From IMG/VR virus record IMGVR_UViG_3300042691_009614, positions 1-24,628 of that record: a stretch of DNA of 24,628 nucleotides. One strand, written 5' to 3'. Positions 1,404 to 24,628 of this stretch are shown in pieces (the first letter of the stretch is position 1; every line of letters starts with the position of its first letter). Both the position numbers and the translations under genes were made by a program. The notes beneath the pieces are model-generated. The model saw only the letters and a list, made by a program, of their open reading frames with translations, did not search any database and was not told the DNA's origin. The stretch comes from a virus.

Positions 1404-2267
1404 ATGAGCGAGCAAATCCCACAGTGGCAAATTGATTACATGCGTTGGAAATACGGTCTTCCTCCAGAGGGCGGTCAACCTAACCAGACATCTGGCAATC
1501 CGTCGAAAGGTGCCAAGAATCCTAACGCAAATAAGACCGTTGTAAAGCACAAGGGTCCAAGAATTGAAGTGAACAGCAGGGGCACAAAGACAAACTATAA
1601 CCCAGAGGAACTTCGCAGATTGCGTGAAATGATGATGGCAAAGGAGGTTCCTACATCTAGGTCTATGATTGGAAACGCATTGTCAAAGGCTAAGGGGTAT
1701 GTTGGAAATGCGGCAAAAGTCGCGGGAAGGTACGCAAACCCACTTATGGGAGCCGCACTTGCATATGACTCTTACAATCTTTATAAGATGGCTAAAGAAG
1801 AGCGTGATTTCGAGCAGTTCCTCAACGCACAGATGAACGCTGACCGTGCTGAGATGGGCGTTGAACTTGATGCGGAGGCTCAGATGCGTGGGATGCGTCC
1901 TCTGTTTGCTTCCGAGTTCTTCATGCAAAACGGTGCACCAAGCAGACAGATTCCTCAGTCTCTTGAGCGAGACATAGACCTTGCCAGACAACTTAGAAAC
2001 TATCTTGACGATGAACAAATTTCAAGGGCTGAAGATTCAGCCGCTTTTTACAGAGACCTCTCCAGATACAACGCCGAGGAGTACGAAAACCTGAGAATGC
2101 AAGAGAGCGAAAACAACTTCCGAAACGAACAAGAACGCTCTCGCAGAGAAGGCACTGGCCCAACACCAGCGTATCAGCCAAGAACTGAACCAAGAACACA
2201 AACACCACAAAGCGACGGTTTCTTTAGCGAAATAGAGGCGAAGATGGCTGAAATCTTTGGTCGTTGA
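1404..2267 (+). CDS. Hypothetical protein upstream of terminase, possibly virion-associated
   Basis: A 287-aa protein, not recognised. The N-terminus (residues 1-75) is polar and rich in Asn, Pro, Gly and Lys, likely disordered. Residues about 92-132 form an Ala/Gly-rich, partly hydrophobic segment (ANPLMGAALAYDSYNLY) that could be a membrane-active or packing helix. Residues 135-250 are highly charged and helical, rich in Glu, Arg and Asn, and the tail is Pro/Thr-rich. This build resembles internal or accessory virion proteins more than an enzyme. The start at 1404 has only an AT-rich leader and no Shine-Dalgarno. The stop TGA (2265-2267) shares a base with the terminase ATG, so the two are probably translated together. 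Confidence 0.8.
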   Translation: MSEQIPQWQIDYMRWKYGLPPEGGQPNQTSGNPSKGAKNPNANKTVVKHKGPRIEVNSRGTKTNYNPEELRRLREMMMAKEVPTSRSMIGNALSKAKGYVGNAAKVAGRYANPLMGAALAYDSYNLYKMAKEERDFEQFLNAQMNADRAEMGVELDAEAQMRGMRPLFASEFFMQNGAPSRQIPQSLERDIDLARQLRNYLDDEQISRAEDSAAFYRDLSRYNAEEYENLRMQESENNFRNEQERSRREGTGPTPAYQPRTEPRTQTPQSDGFFSEIEAKMAEIFGR

Positions 2268-3871
2268 TGTTCGTTCCGACGCCACACCCAGTCCTAGTGG
2301 CACCCACTGAGGACGAGATTAAATCTCTGGCGTTAAAGGTTGGGGCTGAGAAGGCCGCTGAAATTCTCTCACTCAGAGAAGATAAGATTCTAGCGGAGAA
2401 ACTTGACCCGTATCGACACGGATTCGACCTGCCGCACTGGAATGAAGCGGATTCTTTGCTGAAGGAAAACAGCGAGATACTAGTCCTTGGCGGCAACCGA
2501 GCATCAAAGACGGAGTGGGCGGCAAAGCGAGTTGTGCAAACGTTGGTGAACCTAAAGGATGCACGTGTTTGGTGTCTCCATACAACGAACCAGTCGAGCA
2601 TCCAGATGCAGCAAAATGTGATTTATAAGTATCTGCCATCTGAATTCAAGGACTTGAAGAAAAACAAAATTCAGAACGTACAGTACACCCAGAAAAACGG
2701 GTTTTCAGATAACACATTTATCCTTCCCAACAAGTCGCAATGCTTCTTCATGAACTATGCTCAGAAGCGGGACGTCATCGAGGGTGGTGAGGTTGATTTC
2801 ATATGGTGCGACGAACTTGTGCCCCTTGATTGGATTGAAACCCTCCGATATCGCATAGTCACCCGTGGCGGTAAGTTGGTAATAACCTTCACTCCCATAA
2901 CTGGATATAGCCCAGTCGTGAAAGAGTACATCCAAGGTTCCAAGATAGTTGAAACAAAAGCCGCGAGCCTCCTGCCAGACACAGTTAATGTCCTCGGCTG
3001 TGCGAAGGGCACCATGCCCTATAAGGCGAAATCCTATGGGAGACCTGCTTCCGTGATGTGGTTTCATTCGGAACTCAACCCTTACAGCAATTGGGATAAT
3101 CTCAAGAAAACACTTTCAGGAAAGAAATCCAATGAGATAAAGATTCGTGCATACGGGTGGGCTGATAACGTTGCTGGCAATCAATTTCCTCGTTTTTCTC
3201 AAGAAATTCACGTTGTTTCTAAGGAAGAGATACCAAAAGAAGGCACAAATTACATGGTTTGCGACCCTGCTGGGTCTAGAAACTGGTTCATGATTTGGGC
3301 TAGGGTCACGCCAGATGGCAAAATTTATGTTTACAGAGAATGGCCCGATGAGTCTGAAGGCGAATGGGCTATTCCATCACAAGACCCCGATGGAAAAATG
3401 GGAACAGCACAAAGAAATGGTGCTGGAAGGTCTTTGAACGAGTACAAAAACTTGATACTTTCTTTGGAAGAAGGTGAAAATATATGGGAAAGATACATCG
3501 ACCCTAGGGCTGGAGGTACCAAATCTGTGCTTGACGATGGTGGAGTCACGTTGATAGAAATGCTTGACTCTGGAGATAGGCCGATGTCATTCACACCTGC
3601 CGCTGGAGTAAAAATAGACCAAGGCGTAGCACTTATAAACGACGGATTTTCACATGAGCAAGAAACCACGGAATCAAAACACAAGGCACCGCATCTCTTC
3701 ATATCGGAAGAATGCCAAAATCTCATTTACTGCCTGTCAGAATGGACAGGACTCGATGGCGAAAAAGGTGCTACAAAAGACCCCGTGGATTGCCTCCGCT
3801 ATCTCATGGTTATGGAGCCTGTTTACACGGGTGGTGCGGCGATGAGGTCAATAGGCGGCGGCTCTTACTAA
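2267..3871 (+). CDS. terL: Terminase large subunit
   Basis: The 534-aa packaging motor: an N-terminal ATPase that drives DNA into the procapsid and a C-terminal RNase H-like nuclease that cuts concatemers. The Walker A motif GGNRASKT is at residues 75-82. Walker B, VDFIWCDE, is at 176-183 with the catalytic Glu at 183. The coupling motif ITFTP is at 206-210. The nuclease acids are probably D333 (VCDP), D412 (YIDP) and D505/D508 (KDPVD). The length is normal for the family. ATG 2267 is chosen over the in-frame TTG at 2264 because it overlaps the previous stop by one base, the coupling style of this operon. The nuclease-domain loop around residues 365-390 is long and Gly/Asp-rich. Confidence 0.96.
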   Translation: MFVPTPHPVLVAPTEDEIKSLALKVGAEKAAEILSLREDKILAEKLDPYRHGFDLPHWNEADSLLKENSEILVLGGNRASKTEWAAKRVVQTLVNLKDARVWCLHTTNQSSIQMQQNVIYKYLPSEFKDLKKNKIQNVQYTQKNGFSDNTFILPNKSQCFFMNYAQKRDVIEGGEVDFIWCDELVPLDWIETLRYRIVTRGGKLVITFTPITGYSPVVKEYIQGSKIVETKAASLLPDTVNVLGCAKGTMPYKAKSYGRPASVMWFHSELNPYSNWDNLKKTLSGKKSNEIKIRAYGWADNVAGNQFPRFSQEIHVVSKEEIPKEGTNYMVCDPAGSRNWFMIWARVTPDGKIYVYREWPDESEGEWAIPSQDPDGKMGTAQRNGAGRSLNEYKNLILSLEEGENIWERYIDPRAGGTKSVLDDGGVTLIEMLDSGDRPMSFTPAAGVKIDQGVALINDGFSHEQETTESKHKAPHLFISEECQNLIYCLSEWTGLDGEKGATKDPVDCLRYLMVMEPVYTGGAAMRSIGGGSY

Positions 3872-7584: not shown

Positions 7585-8712
7585 ATGGCTAAATTAACCG
7601 AAAGACAATTCAAGACAGGCGACAAGATGGGCCAGCGGGAAGAACTCGCAGACCTTATTTCCCTCGTGGACGCCAAGGACACCCCATTCACCTCTATGGC
7701 GAAGAAGGGTTCCAAACCTCAGAACACCTACTTCCGCTGGCAGGTTGACCGCCTCCCATCGCCCCGCGTCCAGACCGTCATTGACGGCACTGACGTTGAC
7801 CCTAACGGTGCAGAAATCGAGAACTACGTCAGAGACACTGTTGGCGGCGAGACCGTCCAGTACCGCAAGGAACTCGCGGCGTACGTCCAGATTTTCCGCC
7901 GTTCCGTCCGCGTCTCACCTCTGACCGAGGACATCAACAACGTCGCTGGCGTGAACAGCGAACTCGCGAACAACGTCGCCAAGGCCATCAAACTCATCAA
8001 GCGTGACCAAGAAGTTACCTTCACTGGTACTCAGGGTTGCTCGCCTGACCGTGGTACTGGCTCTGGTCAGGGTTATCAAACCCGTGGCCTCCACAAGTGG
8101 CTCCTCAAACGCACCGCCACCGTCGAAACCGTCACCAACGGTGTTCCTACCCCCGATGCTACTAAGCACGACGGCCTTGAAACCATTCCATCCGAGTTCC
8201 GCACTCCAGATTCCTCGCATGCCACAGGCTCGGTTTCGGCACTTAGCGAAGCCCAGATTCAGAACGTGCTGACAAGCATGTACAAGGAAACTGGCACGTT
8301 CAGAGACATGGACGCCCTTGTTGGCCCTAACCTCAAGAGAGCGTTCACCAATCTGGTGTTCAACACTCCTTCGTCTGGTTCGCCCAACACTCAGGTCGCC
8401 ATCCGCACCCTGAATCGCGAGTCTAAGGAATCCTCATACATCTCGTCAGTTGACGTGTTTGTGGGCGACTTCGGCAAACTCCGCCTTCACCCTTCGCACT
8501 GGCTGAAGTGGAATGACAGCACCAAGCAAGCCAACGACAACGTTGGTTACGTCATTCCGTTCGACATGGTTGAGATTCGTTACGGCGGCAACGTCGCTGG
8601 CGTTCGTCCTCTCACCAACAACGGTGGCGGTGAAGCCCGTCTGGTGGAAGCGGTTGCTGGCCTCGTGGTCCACAACCCCCTCTCCTTCGGCGTCTTCGAC
8701 CTGACAGCCTAA
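7585..8712 (+). CDS. Major capsid protein, SU10/DUF5309-like
   Basis: A 375-aa shell protein expected to have the HK97 fold. The N-terminal region has DTPFTSMAKKG and NTYFRWQVDRL near residues 32-56, then VSPLTEDINNVAG near 112, which are hallmarks I associate with the DUF5309 (SU10-like) capsid family. A central insertion around 150-210 contains the Gly-rich GTGSGQGYQTRG. LVGPNLKRAF near 247 and VDVFVGDFGKLRLHPSHW near 290-307 match conserved strands of the same family. The gene is richer in C-ending codons than its neighbours, as expected for a very highly expressed protein. It lies 12 nt after the scaffold, with no Shine-Dalgarno. Confidence 0.92.
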   Translation: MAKLTERQFKTGDKMGQREELADLISLVDAKDTPFTSMAKKGSKPQNTYFRWQVDRLPSPRVQTVIDGTDVDPNGAEIENYVRDTVGGETVQYRKELAAYVQIFRRSVRVSPLTEDINNVAGVNSELANNVAKAIKLIKRDQEVTFTGTQGCSPDRGTGSGQGYQTRGLHKWLLKRTATVETVTNGVPTPDATKHDGLETIPSEFRTPDSSHATGSVSALSEAQIQNVLTSMYKETGTFRDMDALVGPNLKRAFTNLVFNTPSSGSPNTQVAIRTLNRESKESSYISSVDVFVGDFGKLRLHPSHWLKWNDSTKQANDNVGYVIPFDMVEIRYGGNVAGVRPLTNNGGGEARLVEAVAGLVVHNPLSFGVFDLTA

Positions 8713-14744: not shown

Positions 14745-15774
14745 AAGCGTAAAACCACCTCCTCCTCGCGATTACGCAGAGGAAATGAAAGGTGCTATAA
14801 GGTCACAGTTGGAAATGATGCCAAGCATCCTTGATGCCGAGCGTAGATACATTCCCCAGTGGCAGGAAAACCAAGAACGCCTGATGCGTGGTCAAGTTAG
14901 GTCGCTAATGGGAATTTATGATAGTGCCATTCCTATGGCGACACAAGTGGCACAAAGACAGCAAAACGCAATGGCACCGATTGTCGGCAACATAGCGACG
15001 TCTGCTCAGGATGTTTACAGAAAATCACTCGGAAGCGACGCCTATGGCTTGCTAAGCACAATGCAAAATCAGGCTTTGTCTGAACTGAAAATGGGCAGAA
15101 GTCTGTCTCCAGAGGAGACAAGACAAGCACAACAGGCTTCCCGTGCGGCTATGCAAGCGAGAGGACTTCAAAGCGGCAATCAAGCCGTTGCACTTGAAGT
15201 TCTCCTGAACAACAACATGGCTACGGCTAGGGAGAACTCCAGAAGACAGTACGCCTCAAACGTCTATGGTCTGTCGGAGGCTTCTGCGGCGAACGCATAC
15301 AATCAGTACGGAGGCCCGATGATGCAGATGGCGTACTCCGCGTCTCCTGCGGCTATGATTAACACCGCTGGCAACATGGTTCAGGGGCTTGGTCCGCAGT
15401 TGTTCAACGCCGAGTCTGGTTATAATGCGGCACTGATTTCATCAAACCGCAAGGAGCAGATGGACGCACAGATTGCGAACGCGAATTCAGCGGCGTCAAT
15501 TACTGGTGCTGGGTTGGGAGCGTTTGGGAAAATTTTTGGAGGTCTGTGCTGGGTTGCACGTGAGGTTTATGGAGAAAATAATCCCCGCTGGCTTGTTTTC
15601 AGTGACTGGATTTCAAACGACGCACCCAAGTGGCTTTTTGATGTTTATTCAAAACATGGAGAGGGTTTTGCGAGATTTATATCAAACAAACCCTTTGTTA
15701 AATTCATAATCAAGAAGGCTATGGACCTTGTTGTTGAGACAAGAATTCAAGAGAACCAAACAATAAAGGCATGA
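14734..15774 (+). CDS. Internal virion protein with C-terminal CWVAREVYG module
   Basis: A 346-aa protein in the T7 gene 14 position. Residues 10-255 are helical, Ala/Gln/Met-rich and lack cysteines, typical of an ejection-core protein (for example RQAQQASRAAMQARGLQSG). A Gly-rich hydrophobic linker (258-271) leads to a separate C-terminal module that begins CWVAREVYG (272-280) and continues with NPRWLVFSDW, a KHGEGFARFISNKP segment and a basic helix. This module resembles the CFI-box C-terminal domain (CFIATAAYG...) known from bacterial proteins. It probably anchors or folds at the membrane. The start overlaps the previous gene by 11 nt; the stop overlaps the next start (ATGA). Confidence 0.78.
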   Translation: MGSKSVKPPPPRDYAEEMKGAIRSQLEMMPSILDAERRYIPQWQENQERLMRGQVRSLMGIYDSAIPMATQVAQRQQNAMAPIVGNIATSAQDVYRKSLGSDAYGLLSTMQNQALSELKMGRSLSPEETRQAQQASRAAMQARGLQSGNQAVALEVLLNNNMATARENSRRQYASNVYGLSEASAANAYNQYGGPMMQMAYSASPAAMINTAGNMVQGLGPQLFNAESGYNAALISSNRKEQMDAQIANANSAASITGAGLGAFGKIFGGLCWVAREVYGENNPRWLVFSDWISNDAPKWLFDVYSKHGEGFARFISNKPFVKFIIKKAMDLVVETRIQENQTIKA

Positions 15775-18700
15775 AAGCAAATCCAATGTTCAAGGGTCTT
15801 CAGGGTGGAGAAATTTTCCCAGCCACCACAGACCTAGTTGCTGGAAAGGCCCGTGGAGATGAGATGCTTTTTAAAGGCATAATGGCGTTTGGAGAAGGAA
15901 TCGCAGATGGAATAAAGGAATATAACCGTTCGGCTGAACTTAATTCTGCGGCGGGGTCTGGCCTTGACGATGCATCTACTAGAGCAATGGTTTACATGAG
16001 CGACCCAGAACTCAAGGGCACTGTTGAGCCTTTGCTTGAAGCGGCTAAAAAGGCCAGAGAAAAGGGAAACACTCAAGGCATGCTTGCGGCAACCAAGGGT
16101 CTTGAAATAACGCTCGGACAACTTCCAACCGCCTATCAACTCCAACAGCAAGACAGGGAGACTGACACGCTCATTCGGACATCTGGTGCCTCATTGATGC
16201 AACTTTACGACATGGCTGGGAAAGACCCAAGGAACGCTGGCATGGTCGCTAACATGGCACCACTTTTTCAGGAATTCCAAGGCTACATTTCTGGGGAGAC
16301 AAGGTTGAGCAGAACTCAGGCTAGGACTTTAGGTGCAAGGCTTTCTGGCGAGGCACAGACATTCGGTGCGAAGTTCGGGCTTTTCAAGGAAGTCCAAAGC
16401 GGAGTTGAGCAACAGGCGGCTCTAGCGGCTAGAAGCGGACTGACGCCTACTGCCACGGTCCAGATTGCCGCAGACATGAACGTTGCCTTGGATTTTGGAA
16501 AATCGTTCGGAGAGAACTTCGACAGCGTGATGTCCAGCGTTGAAAAGGCCAAGTCCGCTGGAGTCCTTAAGGAATCGAAGAGCAGACAAGATATATTTGA
16601 AGAAACAGCGGCGGCGGCTCTCAGTGCGGCTGAAACATCGGCACCAGAGGTTAAGGAGGCTCTTGGTAGGCAGATTGTGCTGGCAAGAAGAAACATGTTT
16701 TTGGAAAGGCATCAGGAACTGTTTGGAATCTCAAGGGCTTCGACGCAAAGGCTTGGCGACTCTGTTGAGCGTTCGCTGATGAGCAGGGTTACTCCGAGGA
16801 TGTCAGCCGCCGCTTCGCTTGGCATCGTGAACGCTGTGAACGGCGGCTGGGCCAACAACTTGGACGTTTCTGGAAGAATGACGTCATCCCGCCCTCTTTC
16901 GCAGTCAATAGACTCGATTTATGAAAGAAAAGCGGCTGAGGCTTTTGCACGTGCAACCCCTGAGCAAAAGGAGGAATACCAGCGTTACTCAGAGAAGGTT
17001 AACGAATGGAGGGCACTTGCGGCTGGTGCAACAGTCAACGGGAGAAGCGGGATTGAAGGCTCTAGGGCGTATACAGCCGAGGAGTGGCTTGAAACCCAAA
17101 ATGTCCCCCAAAAGGCTGAACTGGACAGCCTTCAGGCAGAAGTCTCTTCTGCAAGAGATAGGCTTTGGCAGTTGGAGGACCAAAAGAAAAAAGGAATTTT
17201 CTCGAATGAAAGAGCGATAAACAGGCAGATTGAGGAAGCAAGGGGCAATCTCGATAGTGCACAATCAAGGTTTTCATCTGCATCATCAAAAAGGTCGGTG
17301 CGTATGGCTGAAGCACCAATCGAAAGCCAAATCGAGGTTACTAGCGTAATGGACTTCAGAGAATGGTCTGAATGGTTTTCTGCACTAACATCAGAGGGAA
17401 TGACGCCCCAACAGGCCAATGAAAAAATAAAGAAAGAGGTGATGGGTAGGGTTGGCATTGTCTACGCCGCCAAAGCAACTGAAAACTTAGTCAACGCAAA
17501 ACTCAAGGGAAACCCACTTGAGGTTGAAAAAGCACTTGAAAGACTTGATAAGGCACTGGATGGAGACAAGGATTTGCTTTATAAGGTTGCCGAGGCTTGG
17601 GGTGGCACAGCCGCCGCCGCCGCACTTACGGCGTACGGAAGCAAGATGGGCTATGATGCGGCAAAAAGGTCTCTCATTGGCGGAATCACAAAGGCACAGG
17701 TTTCCCCTACCCCAGCAACACCTCCTCCTATTCCGCAGGGAACTCCTAGACAATTGCACCTTAATTTCTATCCTCCTCCCAAGTTGGTTGGTCAACTTGA
17801 GTTGCTTGACGACGCTGGAAGACCTCTTGGCGTGGGGGCGGCACCTAAGCCGCCAACCCCTGCCGCTGGAGCCGCTGGGACTACCCCTGCCGCAAGCACG
17901 ACACCTGCCGCTGGAACAGCCGCACAGACTCCGCCAGCAAAGGCAGGGCTTGCGAGAAGAACGCTGTCTGGGTTAAAAACTTTTGGCGGAGGCGTCTTGA
18001 AGGTCGGAAGCGGAACCGTTACTGGAGGCTCGCTTGGCAAATATGCTGGAGGGACTGGTGCTATGGCATTGGGTGCAGACAGGGAAACTCAGGAAAATGC
18101 GGCTAGTTTGGGCGGTGTGCTTGGTAGCATCGCTGGTGCTGGACTTTCAGTTGGCTCGCTCGCTGGGCTTGGCTGGGCAACGACAGGTGCAAGGCTAGGC
18201 CCACAGGCACTCGCTGTCACAGAAACAGCGGCGGCGGCTTCGGTGCTTGGAACGAGATATATTGCGGCTCCTCTTTATTCACCAGACGGAGTTTCCTCTC
18301 AGGAGTACTTTGACAGAGGCATGCTTGGAACTTGGCACGAAAAGGTCGGAAGATTCTCGGTGATGTCACTGTTCTGGGACGCTTACAGGGGTCCAGCAGG
18401 GAGAGCAGAGGTTGAGCAACAAGTAAGAGACAGGAGGAGGCAAAAGGGTACCGAAATTAGGGCAGAGGCTCAGGCTGGCGTCAACTTGGCTGAAAAGAGA
18501 ATGTCTGAGTTCGAACGACAGTACAACATGCCTAAGAGAACTCCTTCTGCTGGGATAGCCATTGGAAAGATTGGGGTCGGCAAGCAAGAGGTTGTTGCGA
18601 AGAAAACGGAGGAACAGGTCAGGAATGACTTCGTTAGGCTAGTCTCCGACAGGCTTGGCTACACTCCAACCAACATAGACGAAATGTACGCTAAGTCTGT

Positions 18701-19352
18701 TGAGGGTTCAAAGCCAGTGCTTATTCAACAGGGTGGTTACACTTTCCAAAAAGAAATTACAAACGGGATGGTTTCTTGGAAGGTTCTGCCTCAACTTCAG
18801 AGAAGCGAGACTGAGGAGACTTGGCTGGCGAAGCAAAAGGCTTCTGGAAACGTTTATGACACGTACGTGTCTTCTGACGACAAAGACCCTAACGCTTACA
18901 GAATAAACATGAAAGGTTTCTTCAGGGGGTCCGACAAGGCTAGGGAAGACTTTAACAAGGAGGTTGTTGACACGACAATGGCTAACTCAGGGCTTAGAAG
19001 GTTGATTCAACTTTCTGGAAGCGTTGGCTCAAGGTTCTCGCCTACTGACAAGGCTGAGGCGGAGGCTCTTGCCATTGACATTAGAGGTAGGCTTAGAACC
19101 CAGATGGCTGGCGGTGGTGCTCCTTCGAACTACGAGCAAATCGAAATCCTCAAAAAGTTCATATCCAACCCAACCGACATATTCTCTTGGCCTCCAGCGG
19201 AGTTAAAGAAACTTGAGATGCTTATCCACAGGTCTGAACAGGGGATTGTGAACACTGGCAAACTGTCTGGCGTTTCAATTACATTTGGCAATCCTCAAGA
19301 CAATCTGCAACAAAAGATTGACGAACTTCGTGCAAAAGCCTCAAATAAGTAA
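15771..19352 (+). CDS. Large internal virion (ejection) protein
   Basis: A 1193-aa protein, not matched to a family but in the T7 gene 15 position. Residues 1-420 are helical and Ala/Gly-rich. Residues about 447-500 form a coiled coil (AELDSLQAEVSSARDRLWQ). Residues about 644-725 are a Pro/Ala/Thr-rich low-complexity linker (PTPAAGAAGTTPAASTTP). Residues about 733-835 are Gly/Ala-rich and hydrophobic (LGGVLGSIAGAGLSVGSLAG), like a membrane-inserting glycine-zipper block. The last 350 residues are charged and mixed. Helical core plus a glycine-zipper segment fits proteins that leave the capsid and build a channel through the host envelope. No lytic transglycosylase motif is seen. The start is an ATGA overlap. 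Confidence 0.78.
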   Translation: MKANPMFKGLQGGEIFPATTDLVAGKARGDEMLFKGIMAFGEGIADGIKEYNRSAELNSAAGSGLDDASTRAMVYMSDPELKGTVEPLLEAAKKAREKGNTQGMLAATKGLEITLGQLPTAYQLQQQDRETDTLIRTSGASLMQLYDMAGKDPRNAGMVANMAPLFQEFQGYISGETRLSRTQARTLGARLSGEAQTFGAKFGLFKEVQSGVEQQAALAARSGLTPTATVQIAADMNVALDFGKSFGENFDSVMSSVEKAKSAGVLKESKSRQDIFEETAAAALSAAETSAPEVKEALGRQIVLARRNMFLERHQELFGISRASTQRLGDSVERSLMSRVTPRMSAAASLGIVNAVNGGWANNLDVSGRMTSSRPLSQSIDSIYERKAAEAFARATPEQKEEYQRYSEKVNEWRALAAGATVNGRSGIEGSRAYTAEEWLETQNVPQKAELDSLQAEVSSARDRLWQLEDQKKKGIFSNERAINRQIEEARGNLDSAQSRFSSASSKRSVRMAEAPIESQIEVTSVMDFREWSEWFSALTSEGMTPQQANEKIKKEVMGRVGIVYAAKATENLVNAKLKGNPLEVEKALERLDKALDGDKDLLYKVAEAWGGTAAAAALTAYGSKMGYDAAKRSLIGGITKAQVSPTPATPPPIPQGTPRQLHLNFYPPPKLVGQLELLDDAGRPLGVGAAPKPPTPAAGAAGTTPAASTTPAAGTAAQTPPAKAGLARRTLSGLKTFGGGVLKVGSGTVTGGSLGKYAGGTGAMALGADRETQENAASLGGVLGSIAGAGLSVGSLAGLGWATTGARLGPQALAVTETAAAASVLGTRYIAAPLYSPDGVSSQEYFDRGMLGTWHEKVGRFSVMSLFWDAYRGPAGRAEVEQQVRDRRRQKGTEIRAEAQAGVNLAEKRMSEFERQYNMPKRTPSAGIAIGKIGVGKQEVVAKKTEEQVRNDFVRLVSDRLGYTPTNIDEMYAKSVEGSKPVLIQQGGYTFQKEITNGMVSWKVLPQLQRSETEETWLAKQKASGNVYDTYVSSDDKDPNAYRINMKGFFRGSDKAREDFNKEVVDTTMANSGLRRLIQLSGSVGSRFSPTDKAEAEALAIDIRGRLRTQMAGGGAPSNYEQIEILKKFISNPTDIFSWPPAELKKLEMLIHRSEQGIVNTGKLSGVSITFGNPQDNLQQKIDELRAKASNK

Positions 19353-19354
19353 AA

Positions 19355-22300
19355 ATGGAAGTAACAGACAACAATGGCCTGTATTCACAGACGCTTCCCG
19401 AAGAGTTCTCGCCACAGGCACCAAAGGGAGTAATTCTAGGCTCTGACAATAAGCCCGTAATAGGCTCTACTGGCAACCCAGAGTGGGATGCTTTGCTTGC
19501 AGAAGTTCCTCCAGAACAAAGGGAAGAGGTTCTTGCTAAACTTGCCGCACCAGAGACTCCGCAGGAAATAGACGCAAAGGCAAAGGCTGACGAGAACTTT
19601 GTCATGTCCTATGACCAGTTCTTAGTCTGGGAGCCTTGGAAGGCTGAGCAGGAAGGCGAGTTCTGGAAGTCGTTGGGAGAAGGCATAGACGCCTTTAAGG
19701 AATCGGTTGCACAGGGCGGAAAGGCACTTGCTGACGACCCTCTTGGGTCTCTCGCTAAACTGCCAGCATCGGTAACTGAGGGCTTTTGGCAAGCGACAAG
19801 AGAGTTCGTGCTTATGGCTGTCGATTCTGAGACGCCAGACTCGATTGTATTCAAACTTAATAATGTTATCAGGAACAGGGGTACTGCGGCTGAACGTTAT
19901 AACGGCTATGTCGAGGCAAGAAAAACTAACGCATTATCAAACAGGCTTTACAGAGGCGAAGAAACGCTGGTCATTAACAAGGACTTGATTTCGCCAGAGG
20001 TCACGCAGGTTGTGACTTGGGTCGCAGACCCTCCTTTCCTTGGCCCAGCCGCCGCTACGTTCATGCGTGGTACTGGGAAGATTCTTAATACTGGTGACAT
20101 GCTTTCAAAGGCCCAGATGAAGGCCCAGACGATTTACGCTGGCGTTGTTGGCGGAACCCTTAAGTGGGGTGCTGGCGTTCCGCTTGAGGCTATTGGCGGG
20201 GCGGTAAGCAACACAATCGATATGGGCGTCAGAAAGGCCGCTGGACTTGTTGAAATCGGAACTGGCATTGCCGCAGAGGATGCCACGAAGTTCGCACGTG
20301 TCGCTGGCATCGGTACGGCCTCGGCACACGTCGCTGGCGTTAGCATTCCTTACGCTGGCCCAATAGCGGCGGCTTCGGTTGGCGGCTCAATCCTTGAGTC
20401 TGTTGGCACGGCACTCAGGCTGACAGGAGAGCAGATAGTCAACCAAAAGGGTTACAAGGGTGTTTTCGGGTACGCTAGACAGGCTTTGATGGAAACCGAG
20501 GAAGCCCTGAAAAAGACAAACGGGCAACTTTCGGATAAAACAAAGATTTTTCTCCGTGCCATCGACACAATTGAGCCAGTTCTGTCGTACTCATACGATA
20601 TAGCATCTGGTGCCGTCGGAGGTGCTTTAATCTCAGGTGGCATGGGTTATGCAAACGCCAAAATGGACGGACTTGGTGCTGGCCTTGGCGTCGGCGGAAT
20701 CCTAGGTGCCGCTGGCTCGCTTACCGCTAGGACGATACTTGACGTCAGCGGTGCCTCTAGGAGATGGAGGGAACAGGTTCAAATTCAGTTTGGCCTTGAG
20801 AATCTTAGAAAGTCTAAGCCGAACTTGGCCCACAACTGGTCAACGGTGTTTTCGCATCCGCTTGGCGATGTCATGTCCAGACTTCAAATGGGCAGAACGT
20901 TTGTGATGGCTGAATCCGTCATCCCAAGGTACGACATGAAGGCTTTTTACGGTGCCGACTCTGGGTATGCTGACTTCGCCAAACTGGACCCAGAAAGGCC
21001 AGACGTTGCATCGTTTGAATCAACAGATGCCTACACAATCAGAAGAATGACAGATGGTGCCATTGAGATTGGCCTGAATCTGGACAACCTATTCAACCCA
21101 AGTAAAAAGTTCAAGGGTTTGACGATGGCCCACGAGTTCCACCACGTTCTGATGCGTGACACGGTTCTTGGAAAGCACTATGGCAGACTGTTCAGAGAAA
21201 CGACATTTGGCGTCAGAGACCAAAACGGTATTCTTGTGCAAAGAGGTCTTGTCCCAACAAACGAACTCATTGACTGGGCTAGAAACTATTCCTCGCTCCA
21301 GAATGACTTTGTTATTAGGAACTATTTGTCCCTTGTTGACCCAGATAACGCAAACGACAGGGCAACTATAAACAAAACAAAGGCAGAGTTAATCGAGGCC
21401 GTGCGTTCATACGCAGACGACCTAGATGTTGGCAAACCAACAAAACTTAGCAAGACGCAAGACGACCTGATTTCCTACGTTTCCGAAGAGTTCGGCTCGT
21501 ACTATTACAGCCTTTGGGCGAACGAGAAGCCTATGGAATATTGGCTTCTTGGCGGCAAACTTGAGGGGCTTAAGGCCGCTATGGACATCGCTGGTTCCGC
21601 ATGGGCTGACCACTGGGAATCAAGAATTACAAGGCACGGCACGATGTTCGACTTCCATAAGTTGAGAAAGGGAATCGAAGTTGAGTCTGTGTTCATGAAG
21701 GACGGAAAGCGTGTCCGAGTCGGTGCACTCGACTATCTTCTTGAAGATTTGGTTCGTGCATCGCACAGCCTTAAAAACAACGGATACATTGATATATCCA
21801 ACGCATCTAAGTCGTTCGTTGACGACCTAACAAGAAACGGCTCAGATGAACTCATCGGCTTCGACCCAAAGACGGGAAGGGTTAGAATAAAGAAGGCCAA
21901 GGAAATAGCGGTTGAGATGGCGGCACGTGGCAAGGAAATGGCGAAGGTTCTGGACGCACTTGACCCATCGCAGAGAACATCAATAAAGGGGCCAGACGGC
22001 GTTTACAGAGGCAAGTTCAGCGACTTCGAAATCGATACCTTTGTTCAGGCTGGCCTGATGTCTGGAGGGATGGCACAGAAAATTAAACTCCTTCAGAGGG
22101 CTAGAGACAACTGGCAGAACGGAATGCCAAACGTCTTTGAGACAACCTACTTCGGTGCGTCTATGGAGACTGGCGTTGGGCCTAACCCCCCACGTGTCAG
22201 GGGTAATAAGGTCGCCGTGAAGAACAGAAGGTTCCTTCTTGCTGGACTTGACTTTGCGGTTGGCGAGGACGGGACGCACAAGTTCAACGTTCGCTCAATC

Positions 22301-24628
22301 GACCTGAAGGTTGTCGAAAGGCGGGTCGCTGAGATGTTCCTTCGTCCAGAGGTTCGTGCCGTCTGGCATAGCACTGAGGCACTTGCTAGGGACTTCTTTG
22401 AGAATTACCTTCCATACATGTCGCTGGACCATAGCGTTCCAGAGCGTCAACTTGGTTCGCAATCCATATGGCAAGAGCACGGCTCATTCAAGCGTGACGT
22501 CATGCATCAAATCGCTGGCTTTGCCAAGAGCCAAGACCTTGCATACGCCAACAGGCCAATGGACGAAATTCCAAGGGGCATGCTTTCTTCAATTACCGAC
22601 TTTAGTATCGGCAGGATGCTCAACATTCAGACTGACGGCACAAATTACAGATACAACCACGAGAACGCTTTCTGGGATATAGCAAGAAACTTCAGCCTGA
22701 GCAATTTTGAAAAGACATCATCTGACGCTGGCGACATCTACAAAGGCAAGATGGGGCACAAAATTGTCTCAAGAAACGGCGTCAACATTGCGTTCGATGA
22801 GAACGGTGAAAAGATTGGCTCCTACAAAACTGTTGCCGAGGTCGAATCGGCATTAGATGATAACTTCACAAAAAGGGCTTCAATTTACCCAGACATTCAA
22901 AAAGAGGGCTTCAACGCTGTTACGAGAATGGCGAATTTCTCGCTCACGAATGTCGATGCGATGGAGTTCAGAAGGAGAATTGTTCAGGAAATGGAATCAG
23001 GCGTTCCTTGGAACCAGACATCAGCAATAAAGGAAGCAATTGGTGCAGACGCTGAAATTCCTGTATGGGCTTACGACGAAATTCTTCACAAAGACCTTAT
23101 CAACTTCAGGGAAAAACTTGAGAACAAAAACGCACCGTTCTCGGTTAACTCGGAACACAAAGTTGCGGCAACCGACGGCCTCCCGAACAGGGAGTTCCTT
23201 AAGTCAATAATGTCCGCACTTAACAATGGCGAAATGCCATCTCAAAGCGGCATTGTCAGCGGCAAGAAAATCGGACTGCTTGTTTATCTGGCGACCACAC
23301 CTGTTGTTGACACTAGGTTCTCGCTTGGGTCTTTGTCTGTTCATAGAGATTTTTACAGAAACAACATAAACCTTGTTCCAACAAGAAATAGAAAGGGCAT
23401 GATGCAACCATCCTCGCTTGGGCCTTATTGCGAGATAGCGGACTCTCTTTCATTCCAAGTCAATTCATCAAGGGTGGCAAGACGTTCGGACGTTAGGCTT
23501 CCGTCTGGGATGCCAGCAATGAGCAGATGGGTTGCTGGAATTGGAGGAGACTCTCCTGTTTACTATTACAAAGCACCATCATACTCTGAGGCGGCGGCGG
23601 AATTCGGAAGCGGAAATTTCCTTAAAAAAGCACAAATCGCCCATATGGAAATGGCGATTAAATCTGGTGCAAAGTGGTTTCTGAAGGACATGACAAACAC
23701 GGACGGCTCAAAAGGTGTTGAGTTGATTCCGATTGGCCCAGAATTCTTTGAGTCAATTCAGCAAGGAAAGTCATTTGCAGATTCATCACTTGTTGCTTTA
23801 GATTCAAACTACGAAATCAAGGATGGAAAATACGTTGATGTTCGTCCATTAGAACTAAACAGAGGTGAAAATTCTGATGGTGTAGACATAACTATGCAGA
23901 AGGCGTCGGAATACGCCTCAAGCAGAATTCCGAGAAAGGCTGGCGATGTTTCAACAACTGCCAGCAAATACTCAACGCCTAGAGAACTCAGGGAAATGCA
24001 AGGGGAAGGGGGTGCAGAAAGGCTTTCGCAACTTCGAAGATACAGCATCAACAACATATCGGAAGATGAGTACGTTGCATCTGGCGTTTCCTCTCAAGTT
24101 TTCAGCAAGCCCAATGGTGCTGAATATTACTTTTCTAACGGACCACTTTTTAAACCAGTTGTCACAAACATAGACCCACAGAAATTCACTACTGAGGACT
24201 TGATGCTTCTTTATCTTAAGCAGAAAGAGGCGGCATTCAAAGTGACTGAGGAAAATCCTCTTATTACTGAAGAAGAATGGAGCAGAAAATTTGCCGAATC
24301 AGAAAAAGAAAAGGTTAAAACCAACGCCGAGGCGTTTATGACGCTTGGATTTGCGGAGTCAGACTTTCTTGTAAGCGGAAACGTGAGTAGTTTTATGAAA
24401 AGGCTCAAGGAGGAGGGCTATTATTTCATAGCAAGAGGTTATGCCAATAACACCCACTTCCAAGCATTCAACAATGCGGGAAGAGTCTCTGATGTTCTTA
24501 CTTGGAACCTTGGCTCAAGGTCTTCGATAGACGGCGAGTTGATTTCAGCAAGGGAAGACTCTCTAGACCCATACGATGTTTTACTTACAAGAAAAATGGA
24601 TGATACCTTTAGCCAAAAAGGGTATGCA
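19355..24628 (+). CDS. Giant internal virion protein with zincin-like domain (3' end outside window)
   Basis: The frame is open for 1758 codons from ATG 19355 to the window edge, in the T7 gene 16 position. Residues 260-365 and 410-475 contain Gly/Ala-rich hydrophobic stretches (VGGALISGGMGYANAKMDG), probably membrane-active. After a strand IRRMTDGAIEIGLNLD comes AHEFHHVLMRD, with H593-E594-x-x-H597, a zinc metalloprotease HExxH motif. A possible third ligand is E711 or E712 in YVSEEFGSYYYS, unusually far away. The remaining 1000 residues have no domain I recognise. Likely roles are cell-wall or envelope-protein processing during ejection, or self-processing. The start lies 2 nt after the previous stop, with an A-rich leader and no Shine-Dalgarno. 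Confidence 0.85.
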   Translation, partial: MEVTDNNGLYSQTLPEEFSPQAPKGVILGSDNKPVIGSTGNPEWDALLAEVPPEQREEVLAKLAAPETPQEIDAKAKADENFVMSYDQFLVWEPWKAEQEGEFWKSLGEGIDAFKESVAQGGKALADDPLGSLAKLPASVTEGFWQATREFVLMAVDSETPDSIVFKLNNVIRNRGTAAERYNGYVEARKTNALSNRLYRGEETLVINKDLISPEVTQVVTWVADPPFLGPAAATFMRGTGKILNTGDMLSKAQMKAQTIYAGVVGGTLKWGAGVPLEAIGGAVSNTIDMGVRKAAGLVEIGTGIAAEDATKFARVAGIGTASAHVAGVSIPYAGPIAAASVGGSILESVGTALRLTGEQIVNQKGYKGVFGYARQALMETEEALKKTNGQLSDKTKIFLRAIDTIEPVLSYSYDIASGAVGGALISGGMGYANAKMDGLGAGLGVGGILGAAGSLTARTILDVSGASRRWREQVQIQFGLENLRKSKPNLAHNWSTVFSHPLGDVMSRLQMGRTFVMAESVIPRYDMKAFYGADSGYADFAKLDPERPDVASFESTDAYTIRRMTDGAIEIGLNLDNLFNPSKKFKGLTMAHEFHHVLMRDTVLGKHYGRLFRETTFGVRDQNGILVQRGLVPTNELIDWARNYSSLQNDFVIRNYLSLVDPDNANDRATINKTKAELIEAVRSYADDLDVGKPTKLSKTQDDLISYVSEEFGSYYYSLWANEKPMEYWLLGGKLEGLKAAMDIAGSAWADHWESRITRHGTMFDFHKLRKGIEVESVFMKDGKRVRVGALDYLLEDLVRASHSLKNNGYIDISNASKSFVDDLTRNGSDELIGFDPKTGRVRIKKAKEIAVEMAARGKEMAKVLDALDPSQRTSIKGPDGVYRGKFSDFEIDTFVQAGLMSGGMAQKIKLLQRARDNWQNGMPNVFETTYFGASMETGVGPNPPRVRGNKVAVKNRRFLLAGLDFAVGEDGTHKFNVRSIDLKVVERRVAEMFLRPEVRAVWHSTEALARDFFENYLPYMSLDHSVPERQLGSQSIWQEHGSFKRDVMHQIAGFAKSQDLAYANRPMDEIPRGMLSSITDFSIGRMLNIQTDGTNYRYNHENAFWDIARNFSLSNFEKTSSDAGDIYKGKMGHKIVSRNGVNIAFDENGEKIGSYKTVAEVESALDDNFTKRASIYPDIQKEGFNAVTRMANFSLTNVDAMEFRRRIVQEMESGVPWNQTSAIKEAIGADAEIPVWAYDEILHKDLINFREKLENKNAPFSVNSEHKVAATDGLPNREFLKSIMSALNNGEMPSQSGIVSGKKIGLLVYLATTPVVDTRFSLGSLSVHRDFYRNNINLVPTRNRKGMMQPSSLGPYCEIADSLSFQVNSSRVARRSDVRLPSGMPAMSRWVAGIGGDSPVYYYKAPSYSEAAAEFGSGNFLKKAQIAHMEMAIKSGAKWFLKDMTNTDGSKGVELIPIGPEFFESIQQGKSFADSSLVALDSNYEIKDGKYVDVRPLELNRGENSDGVDITMQKASEYASSRIPRKAGDVSTTASKYSTPRELREMQGEGGAERLSQLRRYSINNISEDEYVASGVSSQVFSKPNGAEYYFSNGPLFKPVVTNIDPQKFTTEDLMLLYLKQKEAAFKVTEENPLITEEEWSRKFAESEKEKVKTNAEAFMTLGFAESDFLVSGNVSSFMKRLKEEGYYFIARGYANNTHFQAFNNAGRVSDVLTWNLGSRSSIDGELISAREDSLDPYDVLLTRKMDDTFSQKGYA

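What the first reader, a model, noticed from the sequence alone, without database searches (positions are those of the whole stretch)
21053..21520. Zinc metalloprotease motif inside a giant ejection protein
Residues 592-602 read AHEFHHVLMRD, a clean HExxH with flanking helix, preceded by a beta strand (AIEIGLNLD) as in zincins. T7-type gp16 proteins usually carry a lytic transglycosylase, not a protease. A protease carried in the virion could cut envelope proteins, process the ejection core, or act in the host after entry. The third zinc ligand (E711/E712) is about 115 residues away, implying an insert or a new zincin subfamily.
Basis: partly seen in the sequence, partly recalled or inferred. 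Interest (0 to 1): 0.7.

Follow-up and report, generated by a model that had tools for sequence, protein, structure and literature searches.

The report
Protease inside a giant phage protein
An uncultured short-tailed phage encodes a giant protein, probably carried in the virion and injected into the host, with a conserved zinc-protease domain in its fixed front part, ahead of an interchangeable payload region that related phages fill with different host-modifying enzymes.

Summary
The motif is real. H593-E594-F-H-H597 lies in an open frame (19355 to the window end) whose closest relative encodes a 3,579-aa protein. HExxH would arise by chance in about 2% of shuffles. All 52 loci found with patterns that did not include HExxH, and holding the full region, keep it. 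E594, H597, E711 and E712 are invariant in 37 aligned relatives. One clade (L026/L028/L029) has lost the first His. AlphaFold2 (pLDDT 71.7) puts HExxH and the EE pair on two helices. The best structural neighbours are M34/lethal-factor-type zincins, and an intermediate profile links the domain to the MPTase of N4 virion RNA polymerase. This is therefore a divergent zincin of the 'polyvalent protein' kind (Iyer 2017), not a T7 gp16 peculiarity. The roughly 119-residue gap to the third ligand (best candidate E712) is typical of the family. The new part is the architecture: a conserved ~1,170-aa head containing the zincin, a small 'bookend' module, a swapped payload (ART, GNAT or unknown), then a second bookend copy at the C-terminus. 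No isolated phage or bacterial genome searched carries it. Self-processing to free the payload after entry is the most likely role, but it is inferred.

The parts
19355..24628 (+). Giant ORF, cut by the contig end (1,758 aa held; full-length relative in G001 is 3,579 aa)
19952..20854 (+). Residues 200-500, Gly/Ala-rich (26-39% G+A) region directly before the zincin; possible membrane-interacting segment
   Evidence: composition in 8 homologues; role inferred
20852..21574 (+). Zincin-like metallopeptidase domain, about residues 500-740
   Evidence: A8 alignment, AlphaFold2 model, VIA-align neighbours
21062..21079 (+). Predicted strand before the active-site helix (residues 570-575)
21131..21145 (+). 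H593-E594-x-x-H597 motif
21485..21490 (+). E711-E712; E712 is the likely third zinc ligand, on the predicted helix of residues 700-723
21575..22699 (+). Rest of the conserved head (residues 741-1115), conserved in 29 of 29 non-redundant relatives
22700..22876 (+). First copy of the small 'bookend' module (residues 1116-1174); the second copy lies at the C-terminus, beyond the window end
22877..24628 (+). Start of the variable payload region (residues 1175 on); identity to the nearest relative falls from 91% to 61% past residue 1215
15771..19349 (+). Upstream 1,193-aa protein of unknown family, in the position of an ejection/internal virion protein
   Evidence: conserved in G001
7585..8709 (+). 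Major capsid protein, SU10 type; sets the context of a late structural operon
2264..3868 (+). Terminase large subunit

Best explanation
The giant protein is a virion-associated 'polyvalent' effector. Its conserved head (about residues 1-1174) has a Gly/Ala-rich segment that may touch the membrane, a zincin-type metallopeptidase (about 500-740) and a small bookend module. A variable payload follows, and a second bookend closes the chain. H593, H597 and probably E712 bind zinc, and E594 is the general base. The most likely job is self-processing: after injection the protease cuts its own chain, plausibly around the bookends, to free payload domains from the membrane-held head. Shown: the sequence features, conservation, predicted fold, architecture and payload swapping. 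Inferred: packaging in the virion, zinc binding, proteolytic activity, self-cleavage and the cut site.
For: HExxH + EEFG conserved in 52/52 loci not selected for HExxH. Invariant E594, H597, E711, E712 in 37 sequences at 18-27% identity to the window apart from its close relative. Strongest constraint in the zincin core: dN/dS 0.018, against 0.044 for the whole head and 0.15 for the payload. AlphaFold2 of the domain pLDDT 71.7, pTM 0.76, with HExxH and EE on two helices. Top 24 VIA-align rows are all lethal-factor/edema-factor/Certhrax-fold chains or Pro-Pro endopeptidases, Z 6.4 to 4.9, with the next rows at 3.7 and below; the catalytic domain of lethal factor is among them (Z 6.4, 143 residues). 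Profile of intermediate relatives (A10) matches the N4 vRNAP HExxH domain (prob 94, E 1e-7). Viral Foldseek hits are uncultured-phage proteins named ART-PolyVal-like, Large polyvalent protein or NAT_SF. Head conserved in 29/29, middle 0-20/29, tail 25-29/29. Bookend occurs twice in 53 long ORFs. ART-PolyVal and GNAT in the payloads. Iyer et al. proposed self-processing for such domains, with P1 DdrB processing as support (PMC5512222).
Against: No activity, zinc or virion proteomics data exist. VIA Z scores are below 8 and Foldseek against the PDB found nothing significant. No Pfam, PHROG or NCBIfam peptidase model passes its cutoff; the best is DUF5700 'putative zinc dependent peptidase', sub-threshold in 8 of 37. 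N4 vRNAP, with the same type of domain, is packaged unprocessed (PMC5512222) and no degradation of the purified protein was reported (PMC12633501), so self-cleavage is not general. One sister clade has lost the first His yet keeps the domain, so a structural role is possible. No shared cut-site motif was identified.
Confidence: 0.6

Rival explanations
1. The zincin is itself an effector: after injection it cleaves one or more host proteins (a defence or regulatory protein), while the chain stays whole.
For: Iyer et al. list host targeting as an alternative role for such domains (PMC5512222). The fold neighbours include host-cleaving peptidases. N4 vRNAP with the same kind of domain is packaged uncut (PMC5512222).
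Against: The domain sits in the fixed head at a constant place, not in the swapped payload where ART and GNAT lie. An arms-race effector would be expected to vary more than the rest of the head, yet it is the most constrained part.
Confidence: 0.22
2. The domain is mainly structural (packaging, unfolding or anchoring of the giant chain in the ejection machine), with metal binding but little proteolysis.
For: The L026/L028/L029/G010 clade carries GELFH, losing the first His while keeping E, the second His and EE; the tree supports one origin. The N4 C-terminal region that holds this domain is required for encapsidation (PMC5512222).
Against: All other clades keep every catalytic residue, and the dN/dS minimum is at the active site. 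A purely structural role does not require E594.
Confidence: 0.13
3. The HExxH site is a metal site of a non-protease enzyme (for example an iron or alpha-ketoglutarate-type HExxH enzyme, as raised for N4 gp50).
For: The N4 structure paper notes that HExxH also occurs in fused radical-SAM/alphaKG-HExxH proteins (PMC12633501).
Against: Structural neighbours of the model are peptidase-fold proteins, and the strand/HExxH helix/distant Glu order is that of zincins.
Confidence: 0.04
4. Chance HExxH in a large protein.
For: HExxH turns up in 2.1% of shuffles of this sequence.
Against: Conserved in 52/52 independent finds with a co-conserved second Glu helix.
Confidence: 0.01

Closest known systems
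Phage N4 virion RNA polymerase gp50, C1 / MPTase domain (Schitoviridae)
   Same: Giant (~3,500 aa) ejected protein at the end of the structural operon; strand, HExxH helix, insert, then a Glu-Phe helix; a membrane-associated N-terminal domain is reported for N4 (PMC12633501). Linked through profile A10 (prob 94).
   Different: No RNA polymerase found; zincin lies before the payload rather than after the polymerase; H-to-ligand gap 119 against 82 residues; the window's own family profile does not match N4 directly (prob 17). No bookends were looked for in N4.
Phage polyvalent proteins with zincin-like MPTase domains (Iyer et al. 2017), e.g. P1 DdrB
   Same: Multidomain late-operon proteins with MPTase, ART and GNAT domains in one chain; [quoted passage not shown]
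   Different: Fixed head with zincin, two bookend copies and swapped payload form one coherent family; no match to the Pfam MPTase-PolyVal model was seen.
Peptidase family M34 (anthrax lethal factor, Pro-Pro endopeptidases) and the ATLF fold
   Same: Best structural neighbours of the model; HExxH plus a Glu in a later helix.
   Different: HExxH-to-Glu gap 119 against 44 in PPEP-2; no conserved Tyr seven residues before the Glu as in PPEP-2 (Tyr174/Glu181, PMC9147577); no sequence match.

Membership tests
Zincin metallopeptidase (HExxH) | HExxH on a helix after an edge strand | tested here: met
   strand 570-575, helix 589-602 with H593/E594/H597
Zincin metallopeptidase (HExxH) | Third zinc ligand in a later helix, conserved | tested here: met
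   E711/E712 invariant in 37 sequences, on a predicted helix; E712 preferred
Zincin metallopeptidase (HExxH) | Ligands converge on one metal in three dimensions | not testable with these tools
Zincin metallopeptidase (HExxH) | Zinc binding and peptidase activity | not testable with these tools
   needs purified protein
Phage polyvalent proteins (Iyer 2017) | Large protein with domains of unrelated activities in one chain | tested here: met
   zincin plus ART-PolyVal above cutoff (62.7 vs 31.2 bits) in L065 and GNAT above cutoff in L045/L053/L060/L088; no payload domain was named in the window's own lineage
Phage polyvalent proteins (Iyer 2017) | Gene next to late/virion genes | tested here: met
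   same strand, 3' of terminase, capsid and tail genes
Phage polyvalent proteins (Iyer 2017) | Protein packaged and injected | not testable with these tools
   no proteomics; inferred from gene order
Pfam MPTase-PolyVal (PF18818) | Match to the Pfam model | tested here: not met
   not among hits for 37 members at E<=1
Peptidase family M34 | Overall fold | tested here: inconclusive
   best VIA rows, Z up to 6.4, but below 8
Peptidase family M34 | Tyr seven residues before the third-ligand Glu and a ~44-residue HExxH-Glu gap (PPEP-2 pattern) | tested here: not met
   no conserved Tyr there in A8 and gap of 119; PPEP-2 numbers from PMC9147577
T7 gp16-type ejection protein | Sequence-family match, or a lytic transglycosylase domain | tested here: not met
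   no hit in Pfam, PHROGs or NCBIfam
N4-type virion RNA polymerase | Single-subunit RNA polymerase domain | tested here: not met
   no polymerase family hit in the window protein or the relatives scanned; payloads are largely unassigned, so a highly diverged one is not excluded

The most novel reading that the evidence does not exclude
A virion-delivered effector platform built like a polymorphic toxin: one fixed head with its own protease, two bookend modules that frame an exchangeable payload, and cutting by the head's zincin at or near the bookends (or at the Pro-rich linker that precedes the last bookend in 12 of 30 relatives) to release the payload in the host.
Probability: 0.25. Interest if true: 0.75.

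Novelty: new variant of a known kind. Interest (0 to 1): 0.5.

Why it matters
Why large injected phage proteins so often carry protease domains is an open question: self-processing and host targeting have both been proposed, and N4 does not settle it. This family gives a clean comparison. The protease stays in a fixed head, the payload is exchanged between bookends, and one natural clade has lost a zinc ligand. In the ~44-kb relative G010 a single such gene takes about a quarter of the contig, so its function should be important to the phage. Among the collections searched the family is known only from uncultured phages.

Tried and rejected
Pfam, PHROGs and NCBIfam scans of the window protein gave no usable hit. 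tblastn of the zincin or of whole heads against 50,697 phage records found nothing, and two scans of 84,980 bacterial/archaeal species genomes found none. Foldseek against the PDB returned no significant match for either model; only the VIA second look was informative. Direct profile comparison of the window family with the N4 domain was weak, and the link needed an intermediate profile. A recurrent '[KR]FS[LV]' motif was tried as a cut-site candidate; it occurs in few relatives and was dropped. The bookend has no convincing family or solved structure. No shared cut-site motif was found. Rejected: chance motif and T7 gp16 membership.

Full report
Observation. The reading frame starting at 19355 is open to the end of the 24,628-base window. 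A592-D602 reads AHEFHHVLMRD; HExxH is at nt 21131-21145 and the E711-E712 pair at 21485-21490. HExxH appears in 2.1% of shuffles of this protein, so by itself it would be weak evidence.

Context. The window carries a terminase, an SU10-type major capsid protein, tail proteins, a 1,193-aa protein of no family, and the giant ORF last, all on one strand. It is a fragment of an uncultured short-tailed phage. The nearest relative, G001, encodes a 3,579-aa giant, and the relative G010 a 3,655-aa giant on a 44,426-base contig.

Conservation. Relatives were gathered stepwise in viral contigs. The largest scan used patterns from the second motif and a following DKP motif, not HExxH. All 52 of its loci that hold the full region have HExxH, with the EE pair 84-118 residues on, mostly 100. 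Several are near-copies. In 37 aligned sequences E594, H597, a Gly, E711, E712 and a Tyr are invariant. Only L026, L028 and L029 (and G010, the same sequence as L027) have GELFH in place of HExxH; the tree is consistent with one origin on a long branch. Between the window and G001 the zincin core has dN/dS 0.018, the head 0.044 and the region past residue 1215 0.15; synonymous sites are close to saturation, so these values are rough.

Fold. AlphaFold2 on the 37-row alignment gave a 311-residue model with pLDDT 71.7 and pTM 0.76. It has a strand at window residues 570-575, the HExxH helix at 589-602 and the EE helix at 700-723. Foldseek against the PDB found nothing significant. VIA-align ranked 24 chains of the lethal-factor/edema-factor/Certhrax fold and Pro-Pro endopeptidases at Z 6.4-4.9, above a break to 3.7. 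The catalytic domain of lethal factor aligned over 143 residues. These Z values are below 8, so the fold assignment rests on agreement of fold, motif order and conservation together. Viral Foldseek hits were uncultured-phage proteins annotated as ART-PolyVal-like, Large polyvalent protein and NAT_SF.

Link to known domains. The HExxH domain of N4 virion RNA polymerase and nine relatives has invariant HExxH and an Asn-Glu-Phe-Met-Ala helix (one relative lacks the Asn). The window family does not match it directly (prob 17). Profile A10, built from L104, L105, L106 (also in the window family alignment) and L108, L110, matches at prob 94, E 1e-7, and aligns the Glu before Phe with N4's invariant Glu. 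This makes E712 the better third-ligand candidate. Iyer et al. [quoted passage not shown]

Architecture. Among 30 non-redundant giants the first ~1,170 residues (about 1,300 in some clades) are shared by nearly all, the middle by 0-20 of 29, and the last ~65 residues by 25-29 of 29. A module of about 50-60 residues ends the head and also ends the protein: a tail-only HMM finds the head copy in other giants at E down to 3e-10, and 53 long ORFs carry two copies. The window's own head copy (1116-1174) was placed through the multiple alignment and a profile that included its close relative; its pairwise identity to tails is only 13%. Payloads include ART-PolyVal above cutoff in L065, sub-threshold in L031, and GNAT domains in L045, L053, L060 and L088. 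The window lineage's payload matched no family. Pro-rich linkers before the last bookend occur in 12 of 30 relatives.

Mechanism. Shown: motif, conservation, predicted fold, architecture, payload exchange. Inferred: virion packaging (from gene order and the N4 parallel), zinc binding, proteolysis and its target. Self-processing is favoured because the protease belongs to the fixed head and a payload needs release from a large chain; P1 DdrB processing is a precedent (PMC5512222). Against it, N4 vRNAP is packaged whole and one clade lost a ligand. Host targeting and a structural role remain open.

Verdict. The zincin reading is well supported, and the T7 gp16 frame is not. The domain is a divergent member of a known kind in a newly delineated family architecture.

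Noticed in passing
window 22700-22876; C-termini of relatives, e.g. L060:15927-16112: A 50-60 residue 'bookend' module occurs twice in 53 long ORFs, at the head's end and at the C-terminus, framing the variable payload; no convincing known family.
   Followed up: partly
L026, L028, L029, G010 giants: A sister clade keeps the domain but has GELFH in place of HExxH: first zinc ligand lost once, a natural variant to compare.
   Followed up: partly
L065:8138-13000, L053:9870-15590, L060:9885-16112, L088:9858-16382: Payloads of relatives carry ADP-ribosyltransferase (ART-PolyVal) or GNAT acetyltransferase domains; some cassettes are repeated or reordered between giants.
   Followed up: partly
Last 85-160 residues of 12 of 30 giants (e.g. 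L082, L075, L097): Pro-rich linkers (PTPTP, VPPVVPP) before the C-terminal bookend; Pro-Pro endopeptidases are among the structural neighbours of the zincin, a speculative cut-site lead.
   Followed up: no
G012 (L024:7798-15477): 2,560-aa giant at the same genome position without the shared head, but ending in a similar FRVYNP...GYY tail motif (weak HMM match).
   Followed up: no
window 15771-19349: 1,193-aa protein upstream of the giant, no family match, 72% identical in G001; likely another internal virion protein.
   Followed up: no
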